IMG/VR virus record: IMGVR_UViG_3300043446_003177
Location: 1 to 64,000 of that record
Strand: one strand, 5' to 3'
DNA from: a virus
DNA length: 64,000 nucleotides
Shown here: in pieces, positions 1 through 44,176 of the stretch
Layout of the letters: every line of letters begins with the position of its first letter
Position numbering within the stretch: position 1 is the first letter of the stretch
Position numbers and translations under genes: made by a program
The notes under the pieces: generated by a model
The model's input: only the letters and a program-made list of their open reading frames with translations
Database searches by the model: none
What the model was told of the DNA's origin: nothing

Positions 1-3000
1 ATTATGGTCCATTACTAGGTCCATATACTAATATTGATATTTCTGGTGCAGCTTCTGCTGAAGTATTTGTTGCAAATCCACCAGAAGATATTGCTCTAGG
101 TACATTCTCTGGTGTCCTTGTAGAGAAGAAGGTTGCTGTAGAAGTTGGTTCTGGAACTATTACTCTAAGTGGTGATGCTATTACTTCTCGTGAGGGAGAA
201 ATAATATTTACAACTTCTGGAACCATTGATGTTTCTGGATCACTCATTGAGAACAGAAGATCCGTTGAAATTGGTAGAGGAACATTATCTGCCCTTTCTG
301 GATCTGCAGAATCTAAGGGATCTAATCCACCAGAAGATACTGCTCTAGGAACATTCTCTGGTGTCCTTGTAGAGAAGAGAACTGCATCTGAAGTTGGTAT
401 CGGAACCATCAGTATTTCTGGTTCTGTTGTAGATAACAGAGTTGCTTCTAATGTTGGTCTTGGAACCATTAATGTTTCTGGATCACTCATTGAGAATAGA
501 AGATCCGTTGAAGTTGGAATTGGAACTCTATCAGGACTCTCTGGTTCTGCAGAATCCAAGACTATTTCATATAACGAATCATCCATCGCAGTAGATGGTG
601 ACTATGGATTTATAGGTTCTGTTGTAACTGAGTTTGCTGATTATGGTACTCTTGGATCTGTTTTAGAAGCAACTGATTATGGAATTTTAACATCACCTAA
701 GACTCCATTTGGTCTCTTTACTATTTCTATTGATAAAGTTGAGAAGAAGATATACAACTACAATGAGTTCTCCATAGTCTTCTATGATGGAACAGAAGAT
801 TATGGTTCTATTGGTGTCTCTACTTCTTATGAAAACAATGGTTCTATTATTGATTATGCTCCATATGATGACTTTGGAACTATTTCTGGGCTTAGAAATG
901 AGACTGTAAATCCATTTGGAACCATTAATGTTTCTGGTTCTTCAGAAATAGACTTTATTGGGGCTAAGATTCATGAAGGTTCTGGAACCATTAATATTTC
1001 TGGATCTGGTGTTGAGAAGAGAATAAGTTATAATGTTGGTTTAGGTACACTTTCTGCCCTTTCTGGTTCTTCAGAATCTAAGGGATCTAATCCACCAGAA
1101 GATACTGCTTTAGGAACATTCTCGGGCGTACTTCGTGAGAAGAAAACTGCATCCGAAGTCGGTCTTGGAACCATTAGTATTTCTGGTTCCGTATCTGACT
1201 TCTTTATTGAATCTCAAGTACATCGTGGATCCGGAACCATTAATGTTTCTGGATCTCTCAATGAAAACAGAAGATCTGTTGAAGTTGGATTCGGTACATT
1301 AACAGCACTTTCTGGATCTGCATCTGTTCTTGGAGTAAATCCGCCAGAAGACACTGCTCTAGGAACATTCTCTGGAACTAATGTTGAAAAGATAACTTAC
1401 AATTATAATGAGACTTCTAATCTTTATGTTGTAGAAATTATTGAACCTTATGGATCAATTAATGATCCTGTTACTGATTCAGAAAACTATGGAGCAATAT
1501 TAGATGCTTCTACTTTAACTGATAGTTATGGATATTTGTCTGATGGTACGAACATAGCTGCATTTGGAACCATTAATATTTCTGGTGCTTCTGATATTAA
1601 TTTTATTACACTTAGAACCCATGAAAGTTCTGGAACTATTAATGCTTCCGGATTACTTGATGAAAGAAGAACCTTTAGTTACATCTCATCTCCATATGAT
1701 GATTATGGATTCATAATTAACACAACAGATTATGATGAAAATTATGGATTGATAATCAACTCTACTTCTTACATTGATTATGGTCCATTACTAGGTCCAT
1801 ATACTAATATTGATATTTCTGGTGCAGCTTCTGCTGAAGTATTTGTTGCAAATCCACCAGAAGATATTGCTCTAGGTACATTCTCTGGTGTCCTTGTAGA
1901 GAAAATTACAGCATCTGAAGTCGGTCTTGGAACTATTACTCTAAGTGGTAATGCTATTACTTCTCGTGAGGGAGAAATAATATTTACAACTTCTGGAACC
2001 ATCAATGTTTCTGGATCTCTTGTTGAAAACAGAAGATCGGTTGAAATTGGTAGAGGAACATTATCAGCACTTTCTGGTTCTGCAGTTGCTTTTGGTGCAA
2101 ATCCAAGAGAAGATACTGCTTTAGGAACATTCTCAGGTGTACTTCGTGAGAAGAGAACTGCATCCGAAGTTGGTCTTGGAACTATTACTCTAAGTGGTAG
2201 TGTTTTTGATTCTAGAATTATTTCTAATGTTGGTCTTGGAACCATTAGTGTTTCTGGATCACTCATTGAAAACAGAAGAGTATCCGAAGTTGGAATTGGA
2301 ACTCTATCAGGACTTTCTGGTTCTGCAGAATCTAAGACTATTTCTTATAATGAATCTTCTGTTGCTGTAGATGGTGACTATGGATTCATTGGATCACCAG
2401 TAACAGAATTTGCTGATTATGGTAGTCTTGGAACTGTTCTAGAAGCCAGTGATTATGGAATCTTAACATCACCTAAGACTCCATTTGGTCTCTTTACTAT
2501 TTCTGTTGATAGAATAGAGAAGAAGATATACAACTACAACCAATTCTCCATAGTCTTCTATGATGGAACAGAAGACTATGGTTCTATTGGGGTCTCTACT
2601 TCTTATGAAGATAATGGTTCTATTGTAGATCTTGCTTCATATGATGACTTTGGAACCATTGTTGGTCTTAGAAATGAGACTGTAAATCCATTTGGAACGA
2701 TTAGCATCTCTGGTAATGTAGAAGAAACCTTTATTGGGGCAAAAGTTCAAGAAGGTTCTGGAACCATTAATATTTCCGGATCACTCATTGAGAACAGAAG
2801 ATCCTCCGAAGTTGGATTCGGTACATTAACAGCACTTTCTGGATCTGCAGTTGCATTTGGTGCAAATCCAAGAGAAGATACTGCTTTAGGAACATTCTCC
2901 GGTGTACTTCGTGAGAAGAGAACTGCATCCGAAGTTGGTCTTGGAACTATTACTCTAAGTGGTAATGTACTTGATGCATTTATAGAATCTCAAGTACATC

Positions 3001-3700
3001 GTGGATCCGGAACCATTAATGTTTCTGGATCTCTCAATGAAAACAGAAGATCTGTTGAAGTTGGATTCGGTACATTAACAGCACTTTCTGGATCTGCAGT
3101 TGCATTTGGTGCAAACCCAAGTGAAGATACTGCTTTAGGAACATTCTCGGGTGTCCTTCTTGAGAAGAAATCTGCTGCAGAAGTTGGTCTTGGAACCATC
3201 ATCATTTCCGGATCTGCTGGTGAAGACTTTGTTGGACAACAAATTCATCAAGGTTCCGGAACCATTAATGTTTCTGGAGCACTTATACAATCCTTTACTC
3301 CAGCAACAGAAGTTGGATCTGGATCTATTTCTGCACTTTCTGGTTCTGCAGAAGTATTTGGTGCAAACCCAGAAGAAGATACACTATTTGGAACATTCTC
3401 TGGTGTACTTGTAGAGAGTACTACAGCATCTGAAATTGGTATTGGAACCATTAGAGTTTCTGGTGATGCTGGAACATCTCCACTACAACCTTTTGTTGGT
3501 CTTGGAACCATTAATACTTCTGGTTCTCTGAATGAAAATAAAACATTCAGTTACATCTCATCTCCATATGATGATTATGGATTCATCATTAACACAACAG
3601 ATTATGATGAGAATTATGGTCTCGTAGTCGATCCAACTTCTTATATTGATTATGGTCCATTACTAGGACCTTATACTAATATTGATATTTCTGGATCAGC
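1..3700 (+). repeat. Higher-order coding repeat, about 1.78 kb period
   Basis: Bases 1-1776 recur from 1777 onward at a constant offset of 1,776 bases (592 codons). Matching landmarks include GPLLGPYTNIDISG (3 and 1779), the SREGEIIFTTSGTI block (about 187 and 1963), the SPKTPFGLF block (about 695 and 2471) and the ESQVHRGSGT block (about 1210 and 2986). A third GPLLGPYTNIDISG copy begins near 3651, offset 1,872 from the second. Some stretches are nearly base-identical. This is repeat growth within one gene. Confidence 0.85.
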
Positions 3701-5816
3701 TATTACATCTGAGAATGATATTTTTGACCAGAATATTGGATCTGGTACGATAACTGTATCTGTAGATAAAGTTGAAAATAGAACATACAACTACAATGAG
3801 TTCTCAATAGTCTTCTACGATGGAACAGAAGACTATGGTTCTATTGGTATTTCCACCTCTTATGAGAACAATGGATTAATTATAGATCTTGCTCCATATG
3901 ATAACTTTGGAACCATTGCTGGTCTTAGAAACGAGACTGTAAGATCCTTTGGAACCATTAATGTTTCTGGAGGCATCAGAACTGATCTTCAGGTTTACAT
4001 ACCAAATTATCCTGGATCTGGAAGCATCAATATTTCTGGAGCACTTAAGCAATCCTTTACTCCAGCAACAGAAATTGGTTCTGGTACATTATCTGCACTT
4101 TCTGGATCTGCAGTTGCCTTTGGTGCAAACCCAGCAGAAGATACTGCTCTAGGTACATTCTCTGGTGTCCTTGTAGAGAAGAAAACTGCATCTGAAGTTG
4201 GTATCGGAACCATCAGTATTTCTGGTACATCTGATAATGCTAATGGTTATGTTTATGTTGGAACAGGAACAGCGTTCGGTATAGATGGTCTTTCAGAATC
4301 CTTTACATCTAATAATGAGTCTACTACTCTCATTAATATTTCTGGATCTGCTATTGATGTATTTAATTCTGTTTATACTAAGGAGGGATCTGGATCTGTT
4401 AATGCTTCTGGATTAGTAACTGAGTCTAAATCTCAAGTTTATATTGGATCTGGGTTATTATTTAATGTTACTGGATATCCAGAATATATTGGTAAAGGAG
4501 ACAATCTATGGGTTGGATCTGGAAGTATTTCAATTATTTCTGGATCTGCTGTTGTCTTTGGTGCAAATCCAGCAGAAGATACTGCTTTAGGAGTATTCTC
4601 TGGTTCAGCTCAGACCAAACTCAATTCTCTTTATGTTGAGTCTGGTATTGGAACAATTACCGTATCTGCTGGATTCACCACAGATCGTCAAGTATATGTT
4701 CCATTACATACTGGAAGTGGACAACTATCTGTACTGGATGGATCTGCTGAGACATATGGTCCAAGTCCAGATGAAGACGCCACACTCTTTAATCTTTCTG
4801 GTGTTGGTAAAGAATCATTTACACCAGCAACGGCAATTGGATTTGGTACAATCTTTACTTTATCTGGTTCTTCAGAATCCTTTGGTGCAAATCCACCAGA
4901 AGATACTGCACTTGGACTTTTCTCTGGTGCATCAGAAAACAGATTTATTGCTGTCTATACCCAGATTGGTATTGGTACGATTAATGTTTCTGGAGGTATT
5001 AGAACTGACCTTCAGGTTTATGTACCAAATTATCCTGGTTCTGGAAGCATTCAGATTTCTGGATCACGTAAAGAATCCTTTACACCAGCAACCGCAATTG
5101 GATTTGGTACAATCTTTACTCTTGTCGGATCGTCCGAATCCTTTGGTGCAAATCCACCAGAAGACACTGCACTTGGAGTTTTCTCAGGAACTAATATCGA
5201 GAAGAGAATCTATGCATTTGGTGGATCTGAGATTGTATCAATTTCTGGTTCTTCTTCCAGTAAGAAAGTATTCTCTTATGATGGAGCAGGATCATTCTCT
5301 GCACTGTCTGGATCTGCAGAATCTGCCCAATTCAACCCACCAGAAGATACTGTACTTGTAACATTATCTGGATCTGCTTCTGCCCCAACAACGAGAGTAC
5401 ATGTTGGAGCAGGATCATTTTCTGCACTATCTGGATCTGCAGAATCTGTTGGGTTTAATCCAACAGAAGATACTGCTCTATTCACTATTTCTGGATCCTC
5501 AGTTGATCGCTTTATTTCTAGATTCACAGAAGTTGGATCTGGAACGATACAAATATCTGGATCCAATGAACAAAACGTACAAGTTTATGTTCCAGCATAT
5601 CCTGGAAGTGGAAGTATTTCTATACTTTCTGGATCTGCAGAAGTATTCGGAGCAAATCCTGCAGAGGATATCGCACTCTTCAATATTTTTGGATCTGGTA
5701 GAGAGTCATTCACTCCAGCAACATACATTTCCTCAGGAATTGCTACTATTTCTGGGGTTGGAATTGCAGTTACAATTCCATTTGTTCCTGGATTTGTATT
5801 TGTACAGATCATTTAA
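1..5816 (+). CDS. Giant repetitive virion fibre-like protein (5' end outside window)
   Basis: The frame is open from base 3 to the stop at 5814-5816, giving 1,937 visible residues; the true start lies left of the window. There is no ATG, GTG or TTG in frame before the TTG at 1536, which sits in mid-repeat and is not a start. The protein is built of roughly 20-residue repeats with cores such as GSGTINISGS, GLGTITLSG and ALSGSA, alternating with ANPPEDTALGTFSG blocks and Tyr/Asp-rich blocks (DDYGFIINTTDYDENYG). I found no Met and no Cys in the visible part. Such Gly/Ser/Thr/Ile beta repeats suit an extended virion fibre, and downstream genes are also fibre-like. No domain gives a precise role. 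It is followed by a T4-late-like box and the next fibre gene. Confidence 0.8.
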   Translation, partial: YGPLLGPYTNIDISGAASAEVFVANPPEDIALGTFSGVLVEKKVAVEVGSGTITLSGDAITSREGEIIFTTSGTIDVSGSLIENRRSVEIGRGTLSALSGSAESKGSNPPEDTALGTFSGVLVEKRTASEVGIGTISISGSVVDNRVASNVGLGTINVSGSLIENRRSVEVGIGTLSGLSGSAESKTISYNESSIAVDGDYGFIGSVVTEFADYGTLGSVLEATDYGILTSPKTPFGLFTISIDKVEKKIYNYNEFSIVFYDGTEDYGSIGVSTSYENNGSIIDYAPYDDFGTISGLRNETVNPFGTINVSGSSEIDFIGAKIHEGSGTINISGSGVEKRISYNVGLGTLSALSGSSESKGSNPPEDTALGTFSGVLREKKTASEVGLGTISISGSVSDFFIESQVHRGSGTINVSGSLNENRRSVEVGFGTLTALSGSASVLGVNPPEDTALGTFSGTNVEKITYNYNETSNLYVVEIIEPYGSINDPVTDSENYGAILDASTLTDSYGYLSDGTNIAAFGTINISGASDINFITLRTHESSGTINASGLLDERRTFSYISSPYDDYGFIINTTDYDENYGLIINSTSYIDYGPLLGPYTNIDISGAASAEVFVANPPEDIALGTFSGVLVEKITASEVGLGTITLSGNAITSREGEIIFTTSGTINVSGSLVENRRSVEIGRGTLSALSGSAVAFGANPREDTALGTFSGVLREKRTASEVGLGTITLSGSVFDSRIISNVGLGTISVSGSLIENRRVSEVGIGTLSGLSGSAESKTISYNESSVAVDGDYGFIGSPVTEFADYGSLGTVLEASDYGILTSPKTPFGLFTISVDRIEKKIYNYNQFSIVFYDGTEDYGSIGVSTSYEDNGSIVDLASYDDFGTIVGLRNETVNPFGTISISGNVEETFIGAKVQEGSGTINISGSLIENRRSSEVGFGTLTALSGSAVAFGANPREDTALGTFSGVLREKRTASEVGLGTITLSGNVLDAFIESQVHRGSGTINVSGSLNENRRSVEVGFGTLTALSGSAVAFGANPSEDTALGTFSGVLLEKKSAAEVGLGTIIISGSAGEDFVGQQIHQGSGTINVSGALIQSFTPATEVGSGSISALSGSAEVFGANPEEDTLFGTFSGVLVESTTASEIGIGTIRVSGDAGTSPLQPFVGLGTINTSGSLNENKTFSYISSPYDDYGFIINTTDYDENYGLVVDPTSYIDYGPLLGPYTNIDISGSAITSENDIFDQNIGSGTITVSVDKVENRTYNYNEFSIVFYDGTEDYGSIGISTSYENNGLIIDLAPYDNFGTIAGLRNETVRSFGTINVSGGIRTDLQVYIPNYPGSGSINISGALKQSFTPATEIGSGTLSALSGSAVAFGANPAEDTALGTFSGVLVEKKTASEVGIGTISISGTSDNANGYVYVGTGTAFGIDGLSESFTSNNESTTLINISGSAIDVFNSVYTKEGSGSVNASGLVTESKSQVYIGSGLLFNVTGYPEYIGKGDNLWVGSGSISIISGSAVVFGANPAEDTALGVFSGSAQTKLNSLYVESGIGTITVSAGFTTDRQVYVPLHTGSGQLSVLDGSAETYGPSPDEDATLFNLSGVGKESFTPATAIGFGTIFTLSGSSESFGANPPEDTALGLFSGASENRFIAVYTQIGIGTINVSGGIRTDLQVYVPNYPGSGSIQISGSRKESFTPATAIGFGTIFTLVGSSESFGANPPEDTALGVFSGTNIEKRIYAFGGSEIVSISGSSSSKKVFSYDGAGSFSALSGSAESAQFNPPEDTVLVTLSGSASAPTTRVHVGAGSFSALSGSAESVGFNPTEDTALFTISGSSVDRFISRFTEVGSGTIQISGSNEQNVQVYVPAYPGSGSISILSGSAEVFGANPAEDIALFNIFGSGRESFTPATYISSGIATISGVGIAVTIPFVPGFVFVQII

Positions 5817-24713: not shown

Positions 24714-25433
24714 ATGCCTTTACCAAAGATTTCTACACCAACATATGAGTTGGAATTGCCATCATCAGGAGAAACAATTCAATATAGACCATTTCTAGTA
24801 AGAGAAGAAAAACTTCTTGTTTTAGCATTAGAAAGTGAGGACACAAAGCAAATTACTACTGCTATTAAGACAGTAATTAAAAATTGTATTCTTACTAAAA
24901 ATATCAAAGTAGAAGCACTGCCTACTTTTGATATTGAGTATCTGTTCCTCAATATTCGTGGTAAGTCTGTTGGGGAAGAAGTTGAAGTAAATATAATTTG
25001 CCCAGACGATGAAGATACTTCAGTTCTAGTAAAAATTAATATTGATGACATTAAAGTTCAAAAGAACGAAGAACACTCTAAAGTAATTCAAGTTGATGAT
25101 TCTATTGCGATGGAAATGAGGTATCCATCACTTGATCAATTCATCAAGAATAATTTCGACATGAGTGGAAATACAAATGTAGAGCAATCTTTTGATTTGA
25201 TTGCTGCCTGTATTGATAAAGTTTATACTGAAGATGAGGCATGGTCATCTTCTGATGTTTCTAAGAAAGAGTTTTCTGATTTCTTAGATCAAATGAATTC
25301 TTCTCAATTCAAAAAGATTGAAAAGTTCTTTGAAACTATGCCTAGATTAACTCACAAAGTCAATGTTAAAAATCCTGTTACTGGAGTTGAGAGCGAAGTA
25401 GTGCTGGAGGGTCTTTCGAGTTTTTTCGCATAG
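24714..25433 (+). CDS. 26: Baseplate hub assembly protein gp26 (zero frame of a frameshift pair)
   Basis: 239 residues, T4 gp26 family. Typical features are MPLPKISTPTYELELPSSGE, QYRPFLVREEKLLVLALE and a conserved PRLTHKVNVKNP near the end, closing EGLSSFFA. AGGA lies 6 bases upstream. Just before its stop (TAG 25431-25433) lies T TTT TTC (25421-25427), from which a -1 slip would continue into the next frame for 64 codons. Position directly before the tape-measure genes is that of the tail-assembly chaperones of other phages, so it may act as such a chaperone. Confidence 0.85.
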   Translation: MPLPKISTPTYELELPSSGETIQYRPFLVREEKLLVLALESEDTKQITTAIKTVIKNCILTKNIKVEALPTFDIEYLFLNIRGKSVGEEVEVNIICPDDEDTSVLVKINIDDIKVQKNEEHSKVIQVDDSIAMEMRYPSLDQFIKNNFDMSGNTNVEQSFDLIAACIDKVYTEDEAWSSSDVSKKEFSDFLDQMNSSQFKKIEKFFETMPRLTHKVNVKNPVTGVESEVVLEGLSSFFA

Positions 25434-25621
25434 CCCTAGTCCATATGGACTTGGAGAATTATTATAAGTTAAATTTTTCGTTGGTTCAGTACCATAAATA
25501 CTCATTAACTGAGATTGAAAATTTAATGCCATGGGAAAGAGACATTTATGTTTCTTTATTGAAAAATCATCTAGAAGAAGAAAACGCAAGACAAATGGCA
25601 CAGCAAAATGGCGGTTGGTAA
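25421..25621 (+). CDS. -1 frame extension of gp26, tail-assembly chaperone-like (frameshift product)
   Basis: After T TTT TTC the -1 frame reads RIALVHMDLENYYKLNFSLV, then HHKYSL-like QYHKYSLTEIENLMPWERDI, ending ENARQMAQQNGGW at 25619-25621. As a fusion, the product would be about 302 residues. A separate start at ATG 25445 (58 residues) has no ribosome site. The arrangement mirrors the lambda G/GT and P2 E/E' frameshift pairs, which lie directly before the tape measure, as here. It overlaps the next gene by 14 bases. Annotators often list this frame as an independent small baseplate gene. Confidence 0.7.
   Translation, partial: FFRIALVHMDLENYYKLNFSLVQYHKYSLTEIENLMPWERDIYVSLLKNHLEEENARQMAQQNGGW
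25493..25500 (+). promoter_or_regulatory. Late-type promoter box inside the -1 frame
   Basis: CATAAATA within the frameshift extension, 107 bases before the tape-measure-like start at 25608. It may give extra late transcription of the tape-measure genes, or be chance. Confidence 0.25.
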
Positions 25622-28445
25622 TCCAAAAGCAGGATCAAATCAAGGAAACGTCTCAGAAAAAATCGACGAAAGAATTCTGAGACTCCTTGGTTTAGAGGAT
25701 GTTTTTGACTTAGATTACGATACATATCTAACTCTTTTAAAAGAAAGGTTAGTATCCGCCAGAATGACTGGAAGTCAAATTCCAGTTGAAGAAGATGAAC
25801 TTCTGCGCGAAGAATATAAAAAAGTAAGGGGTAAGACTGGAAGATTTAAGGTAAATAAAAAGAAGATAAACGTTAATGATATAAAGAAAAAGGGTCCTTT
25901 AAGGATAACAAAAGAGAAATATTTTATAGCATCTTCGGTTAATGTAATATCACCACAAAAGTTATTACCTGGCTCTAAAACAGCAGATGTAAGTGATAAA
26001 GTCAAACCTGTTTTGGGTGATGAGTTAGAGAACAATATTGCGGCAATAAAGAAGTCTGTATTTTCTATTTTTGATATTTTAAAAAATCAATTCTCTTTCA
26101 TGCAAAAAGAAAGAGAGTCGGATAGAAAAGCAAGTGAAGGTAGAAGAAGGAAAAAAAGAGAAGAAGAACTTGAGAAAAAACCATTTGAGAAAATTTCAAA
26201 AGCGATTAAAAGTATTCTTGCTCCAGTAAAATCAATCTGGGATAAGATTATTAATTTTATCGTTCAAACTTTTCTTGGAAGAGTTGTATTTAAATTAATA
26301 GATTGGTTTGCTGATCCTGCTAACAAGGATAAAATACAGTCGATCATACGATTTGTGAAAGATTGGTGGCCTGCTTTGCTTGGTGCTTATCTTTTATTCG
26401 GAACTTCTTTTGGTGGTCTGATAAGATTTACTATTGGATGGGTATCGAAATTTATATTCCAATTAGGTAGAGTTGTAATACCGTCTCTTCTAAGGTTTAT
26501 TGCTAACCCAATTGGAGCAGGATTAGCATTGTTTTCGGCGGGGGCACTCATCCCTGCTATGTTCCCTGGAACTGTTAATGAGCAGGAAAGAAAAACTGCT
26601 GCTGCTCCTGGATCAAATGAAGATAAAATTAAGGAACTTGAAAAGCAAAAGGCAAATCTGAATCTTTTTGAGAAACTTCAAGGAAAAGAATCTGAAATCA
26701 ATGAGCAAATTGAGTTTCTAAAAACTGGTAAAACCAAAGGATATGGATTTGCTAGTGGTGGATTTGTAAGTGGTGAAAAGGGAGTTGATAAAGTCCCAGC
26801 CATGCTTAGCGATGGCGAATTTGTTATGTCTCGCGGAGCCGTTGATAAATTTGGACTTGGATTTTTAGAAGCACTAAACACAGCTGGTGGTGGAAATAAT
26901 AGACCTAAAATCCTAGGTGGAGTTCCTCATGCTGCTGGTGGTGGACAAATAGGATCAGCGATGGGTGAAAAAGGACCTTCTGAGCAGGGTCTTGTTGATA
27001 GAATGATGAGACAAAGATCCAAAGGGATCGATATGAGTTTAGCAAAAGGATTTAAAGATCTTACAAATAGTAGATTAACTAAAAATCCATTAGATGCTGT
27101 TAATAGATTCATTCAGTATAAGTTTGGTTCTGATCCTTCAAAACCATCTACGTGGGGAGATAAAGGATCTGGTGGAGTACCAGGAATTCCTGGAATAACT
27201 TCTCCAATTTCTACACCATCTGGAATGCCCTCTATGGGAGGTGCTGGTTCCGCTGTAAGTAATTCTATGAAAGCAGTGGATAAATTGATATCTGGAAAAT
27301 TTTCTGGTATGTCGAATGTTAAAGTTCCTTCAATTGGAACTTCTGTTATGAATAAACTGAATAAAGTAAAATCTGGTGTAGGCGACACAATAAAGAAAAT
27401 GCAGGAGAGATTTAGTTCTCCCAAAAAACCAGGAGAAAAGGGATTTATTGATAATCTTAAAAGTGCTACTTATAGAGATGCTGGGGCAATATATGCTAAA
27501 CAAATGCTTGGTGGTATGGGAGGTCCATTAAGTGAACAAGATTTAAGCAAAGAGTCTCAAGCAGAGTTGCAAAAGGCAATTGCTAGGGCAAAGAAAAGAA
27601 CTGGATCTGAGATTGCAAAAGCAGAAGCAAAGATTAAAGAACTAGAAGCTTCTGGTGCATCAAAGACTGCTGATGGTAAAAAAGCTTTAGCAACCCAAAG
27701 AAGTTTCTTAAGTAAGTTAAAGGCAGGTGGAATAAGAGTTCAATATACTGATTATAATGATGAAAAAGGTAAGTTGTCTGAGTCTGCAAAAAATGCTAAA
27801 AATATTCTTGGGCAGTTTTGGGCTACAGAAAGAAGTAAAAAAGAGGGTGGTGGATATAGAATAGAAGATAAGTATGATTTTGATATGCTTAAGAAGAAGG
27901 ATGAAAAAACTGGTAAAATGCGAGACATGAATACCGGTGAACTTCTTATGGAAGGTGTATTTGGTAAAGGAAAAACTATACAACAAAGACTTCAAGCAGC
28001 TCATTTATTAAATCCTTTTAAGGGTAAAGGTGATGTTGATATGGTTCTTGGTGGAAGAAGAACAGCACAAGAAGCATTTGGTCTTGCTGGTAGTAAAACT
28101 ACTCTTGGTGCAATGTTGGGAATGTCTGGAAAACCAAAAGATAAAAATACTCAAGCACTTGAAGCAAAACGTCCTTGGTGGGATAAAGCTGGTTGGTTTG
28201 GTGGTGGATCAAGAATTGCTAAGGAACAAGCAGCTAAAGCAAAAATGTCTAAGAGGCAACCACCAAAATCTTTGACTCCTCCTCCACCAAGACCTCCTGC
28301 TCCTGTTGTAACTATTAAAAAACCAAGAACAAAAGCAGATACCATTGGTAAGGGTGGTGGAAATCCCAAAGTAAATACTCCAAGAATAAATGCTCAAAGA
28401 CCTAGTGGTACTAGGAATGCAAAAGCAACACACGGAATTAAGTAA
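25608..28445 (+). CDS. Tape-measure-like tail protein 1
   Basis: 945 residues. Charged coiled-coil N-terminal third (KKREEELEKKPFEKISKAIK), then hydrophobic segments at about 214-240 and 255-320 (LLGAYLLFGTSFGGLIRF, LRFIANPIGAGLALF), then SGGFVSGEKGVDKVPAMLSD and GEFVMSRGAVDKFG at about 383-415, a motif common in tail tape measures. The C-terminal half is Gly/Lys/Ala-rich with helical stretches (KAEAKIKELEASGA). Directly after the gp26 frameshift pair, as expected for a tape measure. The next gene shares its architecture, so the role may be split between them. T4 gp29 is the functional counterpart, but I see no clear sequence match. Confidence 0.7.
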   Translation: MAVGNPKAGSNQGNVSEKIDERILRLLGLEDVFDLDYDTYLTLLKERLVSARMTGSQIPVEEDELLREEYKKVRGKTGRFKVNKKKINVNDIKKKGPLRITKEKYFIASSVNVISPQKLLPGSKTADVSDKVKPVLGDELENNIAAIKKSVFSIFDILKNQFSFMQKERESDRKASEGRRRKKREEELEKKPFEKISKAIKSILAPVKSIWDKIINFIVQTFLGRVVFKLIDWFADPANKDKIQSIIRFVKDWWPALLGAYLLFGTSFGGLIRFTIGWVSKFIFQLGRVVIPSLLRFIANPIGAGLALFSAGALIPAMFPGTVNEQERKTAAAPGSNEDKIKELEKQKANLNLFEKLQGKESEINEQIEFLKTGKTKGYGFASGGFVSGEKGVDKVPAMLSDGEFVMSRGAVDKFGLGFLEALNTAGGGNNRPKILGGVPHAAGGGQIGSAMGEKGPSEQGLVDRMMRQRSKGIDMSLAKGFKDLTNSRLTKNPLDAVNRFIQYKFGSDPSKPSTWGDKGSGGVPGIPGITSPISTPSGMPSMGGAGSAVSNSMKAVDKLISGKFSGMSNVKVPSIGTSVMNKLNKVKSGVGDTIKKMQERFSSPKKPGEKGFIDNLKSATYRDAGAIYAKQMLGGMGGPLSEQDLSKESQAELQKAIARAKKRTGSEIAKAEAKIKELEASGASKTADGKKALATQRSFLSKLKAGGIRVQYTDYNDEKGKLSESAKNAKNILGQFWATERSKKEGGGYRIEDKYDFDMLKKKDEKTGKMRDMNTGELLMEGVFGKGKTIQQRLQAAHLLNPFKGKGDVDMVLGGRRTAQEAFGLAGSKTTLGAMLGMSGKPKDKNTQALEAKRPWWDKAGWFGGGSRIAKEQAAKAKMSKRQPPKSLTPPPPRPPAPVVTIKKPRTKADTIGKGGGNPKVNTPRINAQRPSGTRNAKATHGIK

Positions 28446-28449
28446 GTAA

Positions 28450-31383
28450 ATGGCTAATTTAGATCCCAAAAAAATGTTGCCGCCTTCAAAAAGTTTTCTT
28501 GCGAAAACTAAGAAGTCGTTTATCGTACCTCAGTCTCAAATGCTTGGTACGAAAAAAATCAATGTATCTGATGTAGTAAAAGGATCGGGAAAAAAACAAG
28601 ATTTTTCTGATAGAATTCAGGAAGATATATACGAAATTAAAGTTAAAGTAATTGATATTGAAAAGTTACTTAAGAGTAGTTTTTCTGATCAGAAAAAGTT
28701 TGCAGAAAGAAAAAGAAGAACTGTAGAAAAAGACCAGAGAGAAACTAAAGAAAAAAAACTTGAGGAAAAACCAAAAACAGATTTAAAAACTCCTCAAATA
28801 AAAAATTTCCCTAAGATAGGTCTCTTAGATACAATTAAAAGATTTATCTTAAATACTGTTCTTGGATTTTTTGCTGTAAGGTTGTTAGATCAGTTACCTC
28901 TTTTGATGAAGTTTTTAACTGTGATTGGTCGTATCGCTGATTTTGTTATTGATATTGGTGGAAAATTATTAAATGGGTTGGTAACATTTATAGACTGGGG
29001 ATATAAAGCGTATGATGCTACACGAGGATTTCTAAAAAATCTATTTGGAGCTGATGGGGTTAAACAATTTGATAAGTTAATGGGCGTGATGAACAAGGTT
29101 TTAAACCTTGCTATTATTGCTGGATTGATTCTTGGTGCTGGTAAATTTGGTGGTGGAAAGGGATCACCTGGACGTGGTGGCGGTGCGAGACCAAAGCCGG
29201 GACAAGGTGGGAGACCAAAGGTTACTAGAAGTGGAGGTGGACCAGCAGGGAGACCTGATGTTAGAAATCCATTCAGACAAAGACCAAAAGTAACTACTGG
29301 TGGTGGAAGAGGATTTGGAAATCCATTTAGAATGAAACCAAAGATTACTGGAAGTGGAAGCAAGGGAATTGCTAGACTTTTAGGGAAAGGTTTGGGTAGA
29401 GTTCCTATTATTGGTGGATTGATTGATTTTGCAATTAATCTTTTAATGGGAGAAAATCCTGGAAGAGCAGCTGCTCGTGCAGTTGGTTCTACGATTGGTG
29501 CTTCTCTTGGTGGTATTGCCGCTGGTGCTGTAGGTAGCATTGTTCCAATTGCAGGAACAATGGTTGGTGGATTAATTGGTGCTACCTTAGGTGGACTGTT
29601 GGGTGATGCTGTGGGTGGAACACTTTATGATGTATTGGTTGGAACAAAACAAAAAATGGCTGAAGGTGGTAAAGTAACTACTAGAGCAGGAAAAATTGTT
29701 GGTGGTGGAACTACAAGATCTCTTAAAAAAACAAAGAGAAAATTAGAAGCAAGAATGCCTGATGAAGTTCAGTTGAATCCTGGAGAATCTGTAGGTGGAG
29801 ATATAAAACTGAAAAAACTTTTCCCCGAATCTTCTGATACTAAAACTATGAGTCCATTTGGAGTCATTGAAGGTACGGCTAAACAGTTTACTGGTGTGAA
29901 TTATCTCGGTCCATTATTTGGAGTATTTTCAAAAGTCCTTTTAGGGCAAAAACCATCATCAAAAGATTATGAAAATATTGGATTGGGAATTAACGCATGG
30001 ATTACTAAAGGAATTAATAGTGGTGATATAAAAGGAGGTATTACCGCTGCATTTGCTGAAGGGGGAGTAGTTGATTCTGCATCTCTTACTGCTGATACAG
30101 ACATAAGTAAATGGGTTGAGTATTCATCTAAAGATCTTTTAAATTCTGCCGTTGATGAATCAACAAAAACTATTATGCAAAACTTGATGCTCAAACCTGC
30201 TGAAGAAACCAAGACCACTGCTCCTGGTGAAGAACCCGGAGCGGGTGGAGATATGGGTGGTCCTATGGGTGCAGCGAATGATTCTGTTGGTGGGGCAAGA
30301 TTATTCATGCAATTGGGATTCCCAATGCTTGCCGCTGCTATCTTATCTGGTAATGTTCAGCAAGAATCTGGATGGAAGGGGCAGAGGACACCTTGGGTCT
30401 TAAACGATGGTGCTGGTACAAATAAAGGATTGATTAGTTGGAATAGAAGTAGAATTAAAAATGCAGAAAAGTTTTTGGGTAAACCTCTTGAAAAAGCGAG
30501 TAATGCAGAACAAGTCAGGTGGATTAAGGAAGAATTGAAACAATATGGACTTCTTGATGATTTTATGAATCCCAAGGCAACTGAAGCTCAATTAAAAGCA
30601 GCGTCTTATAAGTATATTGGATGGGGAGATGTTGGTGCTCGTTGGAAATATTCTTCTCAAATTTTTGCTGCATTGCAGAAAGGTGAAAAAGGAACTTTTA
30701 CCTCTGGTGGTTCGGGTGGAGGAATATCCTTGGGTAAGGGGTATGGATCTGCTGGAAGTAAACTAGCAGGAGAACTTGGAAGATATGTTAAAAAATTAGG
30801 CGTAGTTCCTGGAAGTATTCATGAACATCCAGAACATGGTGGAGTTCGTGGTAGACACTCTCCAAATTCTTATCACTATCAGGGTAGAGCAATTGACCTG
30901 GGTGCATATGCATACGAGCAAGGACCAGTTTTAAAAGCCATTGCAGATTTTAATAGAATGAAAGGTATAAAACCAGTTGAACTTCTTAAAGCAGGAGATC
31001 CTGGTCACAGTGATCATGTTCACGTTGCATATCGAGAGGGTGGATTTGCTGACGGACCACAATATGCAATGTTGGGTGAGGAAGGAACTGAGGCGATTAC
31101 AGATGCAGATTCTACAAGATTGCTTGGAAAAAATTTCTTTGCAACAATTAATGCTATCGAAAACAAATCACAACTTAAGAAACACGCAGGATCTCTTATT
31201 AATACATTAAATAGTTATGCTGGTTATGAGAATGGAGCTCCAATTATGGTTGTTGATCCTGGACCATCTCCAGCAAGTCAACAAGAAGATGCTTCACCAA
31301 AACCAAAATCTGATCCATTCACAGGAGAGTCTAGTAATGCAAATGCATATGATCCATTCAACAAACTATATGCTCTAGGATAA
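28450..31383 (+). CDS. Tape-measure-like tail protein 2 with lysozyme-like and M15-like peptidase domains
   Basis: 977 residues. Charged coiled coil to about 130, hydrophobic helices about 137-200 (VLGFFAVRLLDQLPLLMKFL), a Gly/Arg/Pro-rich linker, a Gly/Ala membrane-like stretch (about 320-395), then two enzymatic modules. Residues about 616-745 resemble tail lysozymes (NVQQESGW with Glu639, NKGLISWNRSR). Residues about 776-862 resemble M15-type D-Ala-D-Ala or endopeptidases: His803, SYHYQGRAIDLG with His809 and Asp816, and GHSDHVHVA with His856 and His858. GEEGTEAITDAD near the end is a common tape-measure motif. It probably digests peptidoglycan as DNA enters. It starts 5 bases after the previous stop. 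Confidence 0.75.
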   Translation: MANLDPKKMLPPSKSFLAKTKKSFIVPQSQMLGTKKINVSDVVKGSGKKQDFSDRIQEDIYEIKVKVIDIEKLLKSSFSDQKKFAERKRRTVEKDQRETKEKKLEEKPKTDLKTPQIKNFPKIGLLDTIKRFILNTVLGFFAVRLLDQLPLLMKFLTVIGRIADFVIDIGGKLLNGLVTFIDWGYKAYDATRGFLKNLFGADGVKQFDKLMGVMNKVLNLAIIAGLILGAGKFGGGKGSPGRGGGARPKPGQGGRPKVTRSGGGPAGRPDVRNPFRQRPKVTTGGGRGFGNPFRMKPKITGSGSKGIARLLGKGLGRVPIIGGLIDFAINLLMGENPGRAAARAVGSTIGASLGGIAAGAVGSIVPIAGTMVGGLIGATLGGLLGDAVGGTLYDVLVGTKQKMAEGGKVTTRAGKIVGGGTTRSLKKTKRKLEARMPDEVQLNPGESVGGDIKLKKLFPESSDTKTMSPFGVIEGTAKQFTGVNYLGPLFGVFSKVLLGQKPSSKDYENIGLGINAWITKGINSGDIKGGITAAFAEGGVVDSASLTADTDISKWVEYSSKDLLNSAVDESTKTIMQNLMLKPAEETKTTAPGEEPGAGGDMGGPMGAANDSVGGARLFMQLGFPMLAAAILSGNVQQESGWKGQRTPWVLNDGAGTNKGLISWNRSRIKNAEKFLGKPLEKASNAEQVRWIKEELKQYGLLDDFMNPKATEAQLKAASYKYIGWGDVGARWKYSSQIFAALQKGEKGTFTSGGSGGGISLGKGYGSAGSKLAGELGRYVKKLGVVPGSIHEHPEHGGVRGRHSPNSYHYQGRAIDLGAYAYEQGPVLKAIADFNRMKGIKPVELLKAGDPGHSDHVHVAYREGGFADGPQYAMLGEEGTEAITDADSTRLLGKNFFATINAIENKSQLKKHAGSLINTLNSYAGYENGAPIMVVDPGPSPASQQEDASPKPKSDPFTGESSNANAYDPFNKLYALG

Positions 31384-41041: not shown

Positions 41042-43538
<2,497 letters not shown>

Positions 43539-43552
43539 GGCATTATCATTTA

Positions 43553-44176
43553 ATGAAGTCTGACTATTATATTGAACGTGTGAATAAATCAGAATCCGCA
43601 GAGTTACTTCTGCGGTTTCATTATCTTAAAGACTTTTCTAAAGGATTTAAGAGTGGATATAACTATGGTTTATATAAAAGTAATGACTTTTGTCCATTAA
43701 ATATTGGTGGTATTCAGGGAGTTTGTCTTTTTACTGGTCTACCAGTTCCAGAAATTGCAGTAGGAGCATTTGGCTTAAATCGTGATGAACAGCAAGGAAT
43801 ATTTGAACTTTCGAGACTCTGCATCCACCCAGACACACAATCTGTGGAGCATAATATCACTTCTTGGTTTGTTTCAAGAGCGATTAGACAGTTACGGAAG
43901 GATACTGAAGTTAAAGCAATCATCTCTTACGCTGATAGTGATTTCCATAATGGTACAATCTATCGCGCTTGTAATTTTAAATATTGCGGACTCACAGACC
44001 CAAAGAAAGATTTCTACTATGCAGACGGAACTAAACACTCTAGAGGTAAAGTTAAAGGTGCTGCAGGAGAATGGAAAGACCGGTCCCGCAAACATCGGTA
44101 TGTGATGATCTTTGATAAAAATCTTAAATGTTTGTGGGAAAGTGAGAATTGTGCTATAATTGATGGGTCCGTGTGA
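43553..44176 (+). CDS. Mom-like DNA modification protein (GNAT-type fold)
   Basis: 207 residues. Features of the Mu Mom family: ELSRLCIHPD at 85-94, SYADSDFHNGTIYRACNFKY with SYAD at 125-128, a KHSRGK motif and RSRKHRYVMIFDK at 177-189. Mu Mom converts adenine to a carbamoylmethylated form that blocks restriction, and it has an acetyltransferase-like fold. This protein may modify phage DNA. The match is to the family pattern, not to proven activity. It lies next to metK and ahcY but Mom itself is not known to use SAM. Confidence 0.75.
   Translation: MKSDYYIERVNKSESAELLLRFHYLKDFSKGFKSGYNYGLYKSNDFCPLNIGGIQGVCLFTGLPVPEIAVGAFGLNRDEQQGIFELSRLCIHPDTQSVEHNITSWFVSRAIRQLRKDTEVKAIISYADSDFHNGTIYRACNFKYCGLTDPKKDFYYADGTKHSRGKVKGAAGEWKDRSRKHRYVMIFDKNLKCLWESENCAIIDGSV

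What the first reader, a model, noticed from the sequence alone, without database searches (positions are those of the whole stretch)
25401..25621. Probable programmed -1 frameshift before the tape measure
gp26 reads AGT TTT TTC GCA TAG; the heptamer T TTT TTC (25421-25427) allows a -1 slip into a frame that runs 64 codons further with a coherent protein (HKYSLTEIENLMPWERDI). The independent ATG has no ribosome site. Gene order (gp26 pair, then tape measure) equals lambda G/GT and P2 E/E'. This suggests that T4-like cyanophage gp26 is a tail-assembly chaperone made in two forms.
Basis: partly seen in the sequence, partly recalled or inferred. Interest (0 to 1): 0.8.

Follow-up and report, generated by a model that had tools for sequence, protein, structure and literature searches.

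The report
Frameshifted tail assembly chaperone in cyanophage
At the end of a tail-building gene of this ocean virus the ribosome is very probably made to slip back one base on a fixed T-rich motif, so that one gene yields a short and a long helper protein for tail assembly; this is a well-known trick of tailed phages, here left unannotated, with conserved RNA signals on both sides of the motif.

Summary
gp26 (24714-25433) ends AGT TTT TTC GCA TAG, and the -1 frame from T_TTT_TTC (25421-25427) stays open for 64 codons up to the tape-measure gene. Chance is excluded. In 140 distinct cyanophage-type relatives the heptamer is invariant, and its two Phe codons are the only ones of 127 conserved gp26 codons without synonymous change. 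The -1 frame is open in all 140. The heptamer recurs in Vibrio, Aeromonas, Stenotrophomonas, Desulfovibrio, Rhizobium, Pseudomonas and Pelagibacter phages. In a Desulfovibrio phage the -1 ORF has no ATG/GTG/TTG in its first 40 codons; in Aeromonas phages the first is at codon 32. T4 gp51 is the in-frame equivalent of the fusion and T4 gp26 of the short form. Best explanation: -1 programmed frameshifting makes short and long tail assembly chaperones. That gp26/gp51-type genes are chaperones in T4-like phages has been published (Vladimirov et al. 2022, known here only through papers that cite it), so this is a new, unannotated member of a known kind. Expression and frameshift efficiency are not shown.

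The parts
24714..25433 (+). gp26, short form (TAC-N): 239 aa, PF12322 / phrog_150
   Evidence: AlphaFold2 model pLDDT 86
25406..25410 (+). SD-like GGAGG, 10 nt upstream of the heptamer; likely stimulator
   Evidence: strongest excess of anti-SD pairing over synonymous expectation among 228 windows of gp26 in relatives
25421..25427 (+). slippery heptamer T_TTT_TTC
   Evidence: 140/140 gp26 sequences, zero synonymous change; TTTTTT[C/T/G] in 17 of 19 relatives fetched from annotated phage records
25431..25433 (+). zero-frame stop TAG that ends the short form
25435..25454 (+). stem-loop (CC.AGUCC AUAU GGACU.GG) 7 nt after the heptamer; likely stimulator
   Evidence: fold, covariation, strongest of 114 windows
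25427..25621 (+). -1 frame extension (64 aa and stop), C-terminal part of the long form (TAC-NC); phrog_634, often annotated separately as 'gp51' or 'baseplate hub assembly catalyst'
25445..25447 (+). first ATG of the -1 frame, inside the stem-loop, no SD; not needed if the frame is entered by slippage
25608..28445 (+). probable tape measure gene, presumed client, overlaps the -1 ORF by 14 nt
   Evidence: gene order; weak PHROG tape-measure hits

Best explanation
Ribosomes translating gp26 reach T_TTT_TTC just before the stop. Most terminate at TAG and give the 239-aa short chaperone. A minority slip back one base, helped by an SD-like GGAGG 10 nt upstream and a stem-loop 7 nt downstream, and read 64 more codons to give a long form of about 302 aa (238 gp26 residues plus 64). 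Short and long forms together would coat or recruit the tape measure protein encoded immediately downstream and guide tube assembly, as lambda gpG and gpGT do. Shown by comparison: heptamer, open -1 frame, both flanking signals, T4 gp51 homology. Inferred: that slippage occurs, its rate, and the chaperone function.
For: Slip codons TTT and TTC are the only 2 of 127 conserved codon columns with no synonymous change; TTC is a minority Phe codon, 593 of 1875; parsimony changes 0 against a median of 27 over 74 columns. The -1 frame is open in 140/140, the 0 and +1 frames always closed; the -1 codons before the first ATG keep their amino acids (R1, I/V2, H6) while third bases vary. In 3 loci the -1 frame opens exactly at the heptamer. 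The heptamer (TTTTTT followed by C, T or G) recurs in Vibrio, Aeromonas, Stenotrophomonas, Desulfovibrio, Rhizobium, Agrobacterium, Sinorhizobium, Pseudomonas, Pelagibacter and Methylophilales phages. Aeromonas phages 65 and AS-szw have no start codon before codon 32 of the -1 ORF, and the Desulfovibrio phage none in 40. T4 gp26 is PF12322 alone, while T4 gp51 is PF12322 plus the C-terminal domain in frame and runs across the junction without a gap. phrog_150 matches positions 5-233 in frame 0 and 230-280 in frame -1 from 25418, and there is no second copy in the 172-kb record. Stem-loop with covariation and SD-like element. Foldseek: the three highest probabilities among the 50 PDB matches listed are HK97 tail assembly chaperone chains (0.63, 0.60) and YqbN (0.41).
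Against: No peptide, reporter or ribosome-profiling data. The Foldseek PDB matches have E-values above 1, and the T4-gp51-like model gave no chaperone match. Kuttervirus phages and Vibrio phage D495 keep the -1 ORF without a canonical heptamer. Several distant phages (S-H38, AS-szw, Aeromonas 65, HTVC008M) show no strong downstream hairpin in 40 nt, so the hairpin is not universal.
Confidence: 0.9

Rival explanations
1. The -1 ORF is a separate small gene ('gp51') translated from its own ATG by termination-reinitiation after the gp26 stop, as most database records imply; no fusion is made.
For: About half of the relatives have an ATG 2 nt after the gp26 stop (73/140 at -1 codon 4), and many records annotate a separate ORF.
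Against: The heptamer is invariant at synonymous sites. The other half lack that ATG, one locus has none until codon 20, and Desulfovibrio and Aeromonas phages lack any usable start. The -1 codons before the ATG are conserved as protein. T4 gp51 is a natural fusion. No SD, and the window's ATG lies inside a hairpin.
Confidence: 0.05
2. Both routes operate: frameshifting gives the fusion, and in lineages with an early ATG some free C-terminal domain is also made by reinitiation.
For: Early ATG in about half of the loci; the two routes do not exclude each other.
Against: No SD upstream of those ATGs; residue 4 is M or L, so the ATG may simply encode a tolerated residue.
Confidence: 0.1
3. The frameshift and fusion are real, but gp26 is a baseplate-hub assembly factor unrelated to tail assembly chaperones of the lambda G type.
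For: Historical T4 annotation as baseplate hub; a 2010 review lists gp26 and gp51 as hub assembly chaperones. PDB fold matches are not significant.
Against: Position just before the tape measure, short plus long architecture, best fold probabilities to HK97 tail assembly chaperone, and published identification of T4-like tail assembly chaperone genes.
Confidence: 0.1
4. Chance homopolymer or sequencing indel that splits a single gene.
For: Homopolymers are error-prone, and the heptamer sequence as such is at chance frequency in the window.
Against: Same arrangement in 140 distinct sequences and in isolate genomes.
Confidence: 0.005

Closest known systems
Lambda G/G-T tail assembly chaperones (conserved tail-gene frameshift, Xu, Hendrix and Duda 2004)
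   Same: Two overlapping frames just before the tape measure, -1 slip near the end of the first, short protein plus long fusion.
   Different: Heptamer TTTTTTC rather than lambda GGGAAAG (the latter from memory); gp26 is larger (239 aa) and of the PF12322 family; extra SD-like and stem-loop signals.
T4 gp26 / gp51
   Same: Same protein family; T4 gp26 is the short form and gp51 the long form including the C-terminal domain.
   Different: In T4 the forms come from two divergent genes without a frameshift; here one gene with a slip site.
TAC-N/TAC-NC of Vandenendeviridae and Andersonviridae phages (phage Adele paper, PMC12846349)
   Same: Invariant poly-T slip motif (GTTTTT) near the end of TAC-N, -1 frame without stops, unannotated fusion.
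   Different: Different phage families; no covarying hairpin or SD element mentioned in the section read.
E. coli dnaX -1 frameshift cassette (from memory)
   Same: SD-like element about 10 nt upstream, heptamer, stem-loop a few nt downstream.
   Different: A AAA AAG heptamer in a DNA polymerase gene; no common ancestry implied.

Membership tests
-1 programmed ribosomal frameshift signal | X_XXY_YYZ heptamer in zero-frame phase, conserved beyond protein coding | tested here: met
-1 programmed ribosomal frameshift signal | Open, protein-coding -1 frame starting at the heptamer | tested here: met
-1 programmed ribosomal frameshift signal | Stimulatory elements (upstream SD-like, downstream structure 5-9 nt away) | tested here: met
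   present as conserved sequence/structure: in the cyanophage group; structure absent in several distant relatives; stimulatory effect itself not measured
-1 programmed ribosomal frameshift signal | Measured slippage and a fusion protein | not testable with these tools
   needs a reporter or proteomics
Tail assembly chaperone TAC-N/TAC-NC | Short and long forms sharing the N-terminal domain | tested here: met
   coding capacity only: one gene plus slip here; two genes in T4
Tail assembly chaperone TAC-N/TAC-NC | Encoded directly upstream of the tape measure | tested here: met
   gene order; tape-measure assignment itself weak
Tail assembly chaperone TAC-N/TAC-NC | Chaperone fold (HK97 tail assembly chaperone, YqbN) | tested here: inconclusive
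   best probabilities among listed PDB matches but E above 1; no such match for the gp51-like model
Tail assembly chaperone TAC-N/TAC-NC | Binding to the tape measure, absence from the virion | not testable with these tools
   needs biochemistry and virion proteomics
T4 gp26 family (PF12322 / phrog_150) | Profile match above the curated cut-off | tested here: met
   255.9 bits against 24.5; phrog_150 E 3.8e-81

The most novel reading that the evidence does not exclude
The cyanophage gp26 junction is a three-part -1 frameshift cassette (SD-like element, T_TTT_TTC, covarying stem-loop), ancestral to T4-like and several other large myoviruses. It was replaced in the T4 and Biquartavirus lineages by two separate genes (26 and 51), and the slip site was rewritten to a non-canonical one in Ackermannviridae.
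Probability: 0.5. Interest if true: 0.5.

Novelty: new member of a known kind. Interest (0 to 1): 0.42.

Why it matters
The 'baseplate hub' and 'hub assembly catalyst' ORFs of marine T4-like phages are very probably one frameshifted chaperone gene; none of the 19 fetched relatives with this arrangement is annotated that way (18 of these records carry annotation). Correct annotation would explain the puzzling 'gp51' mini-gene, tie T4 genes 26 and 51 to lambda G/GT, and give a testable cassette for -1 frameshifting in cyanobacterial and pelagic hosts.

Tried and rejected
Independent start for the -1 ORF: rejected as the general route because relatives lack usable starts. Sequencing error: rejected by conservation. 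Sequence search of PDB with the gp26/gp51 profile: nothing. Fold search with the T4-gp51-like model: nothing useful. The fusion itself was not folded, because a -1 junction cannot be read letter for letter from the DNA as the tool requires. Full texts of Xu 2004 and Vladimirov 2022 are not held. No paper in the held library was found that describes the cyanophage site.

Full report
Observation. gp26 (24714-25433) ends AGT TTT TTC GCA TAG. The heptamer T_TTT_TTC lies at 25421-25427 in slippage phase, and the -1 frame runs 64 codons from 25427 to a TAA at 25619-25621, overlapping by 14 nt the start of the large ORF at 25608. The heptamer as a string is at chance frequency in the window, 39 against 39.6 expected. 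In-phase on a coding strand it occurs once in 17,774 codons of 34 genes.

Conservation. Two scans of viral contigs gave 160 loci; 135 non-redundant loci all have TTTTTTC at -10 from the gp26 stop and the second frame at -1. On 140 distinct gp26 sequences, window included, the two slip codons are TTT 140/140 and TTC 140/140. They are the only ones of 127 conserved codon columns with no synonymous change, while over the whole gene TTC makes up 593 of 1875 Phe codons. On a tree they have 0 changes against a median of 27 over 74 strongly conserved columns, and other conserved Phe codons change 3 to 42 times. The -1 frame is open over 55 codons in all, and the other two frames are always closed. 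The -1 codons between heptamer and first ATG are conserved as amino acids and vary at third positions, which independent initiation at the ATG would not explain.

Breadth. Among 19 further relatives fetched from annotated phage records, 17 have TTTTTT followed by C, T or G in phase before the stop, followed by a homologous -1 ORF. They are S-PM2, P-SSM2, S-PRM1, S-H38, S-CRM01, the pelagiphages HTVC008M and Mosig, Methylophilales phage Melnitz-2, KVP40, Aeromonas phages 65 and AS-szw, Stenotrophomonas YB07, Desulfovibrio 7757, Pseudomonas pf16, Sinorhizobium phiM7, Rhizobium RHph_I34 and Agrobacterium OLIVR5. The two exceptions are a Kuttervirus and Vibrio phage D495. In the Desulfovibrio phage no ATG, GTG or TTG occurs in 40 codons of the -1 ORF, and in the two Aeromonas phages the first is codon 32. 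No joined CDS is flagged in the records fetched; the Desulfovibrio record carries no annotation at all.

T4 link. T4 gp26 matches only PF12322 / phrog_150 positions 14-235. T4 gp51 matches the same domain and continues through phrog_150 position 280 and phrog_634. In the alignment T4-type gp51 runs without a gap past the Phe that corresponds to the second slip-site Phe into the C-terminal segment (matching the -1 product to it residue by residue is my reading of the two sequences). Genes 26 and 51 are separate and divergent in T4, and the same holds in a Biquartavirus. In the window's own 172-kb record phrog_150 matches positions 5-233 in frame 0 and 230-280 in frame -1 starting at 25418, with no other copy. 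So the frame change sits at the slip site to within a few residues.

Downstream, a stem-loop 25435-25454 starts 7 nt after the heptamer. In 107 distinct sequences the pair between -1 codon 5 base 1 and codon 8 base 3 covaries (GTC..GAC 41, ATC..GAT 27) and has by far the highest mutual information for that base, 0.31 against 0.07 for the next. Parsimony infers about 10 double GC/AT switches. The folding gain over synonymous shuffles is the largest of 114 windows. S-PM2, P-SSM2 and S-PRM1 have longer stems in the same place. Upstream, GGAGG at 25406-25410 lies 10 nt before the heptamer, and its anti-SD pairing excess over synonymous expectation is the largest of 228 windows in gp26. These are comparative signals; a stimulatory role is inferred.

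Function. AlphaFold2 models of gp26 and a T4-type gp51 are confident (pLDDT 86 and 89). In PDB the highest match probabilities for gp26 are HK97 tail assembly chaperone (0.63, 0.60) and YqbN (0.41), but E-values exceed 1, so the fold test is only suggestive. Order before the tape measure and short/long forms fit a tail assembly chaperone.

Literature. [quoted passage not shown] The PRFect paper states, citing Vladimirov et al. 2022, that some T4-like phages carry a short gene plus a separate long fusion gene instead of frameshifting. The Adele paper cites the same work for poly-T slip signals in TAC-N genes of T4-like phages and shows a similar case in other families. I could not read that work itself, so whether the cyanophage site is listed there is open.

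Verdict. The case is a new, unannotated member of a known kind, with two additional cis-elements documented here. Slippage, its rate and chaperone function remain untested.

Noticed in passing
L203-L216, L218, L220 (Kuttervirus-type, Ackermannviridae) at the gp26 stop: gp26 ends [A/G]ATT TTC AT[T/C] TAA with a conserved -1 ORF (FHLIFEIDLLSYF...) whose first possible start is codon 13; third-base changes suggest -1 coding before it, yet there is no canonical heptamer. Possible non-canonical slip site.
   Followed up: partly
41042-44176: Adjacent genes for S-adenosylmethionine synthetase (PF00438/02772/02773), S-adenosylhomocysteine hydrolase (PF05221/00670) and a Mom-family DNA modification protein (PF25680): a SAM-cycle pair next to a DNA modification gene.
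   Followed up: partly
25608-28445 and 28450-31383: Two consecutive large tape-measure-like ORFs; the second carries a weak phage tail lysozyme match (PF18013, below cut-off).
   Followed up: no
L177 (S-PM2) just after its slip site: A 14-bp near-perfect stem follows the heptamer, z -7.6: a good model for testing the hairpin's role.
   Followed up: no
1536-5816: 1426-aa ORF of many degenerate GSGTINVSG-type repeats with no Pfam match.
   Followed up: no
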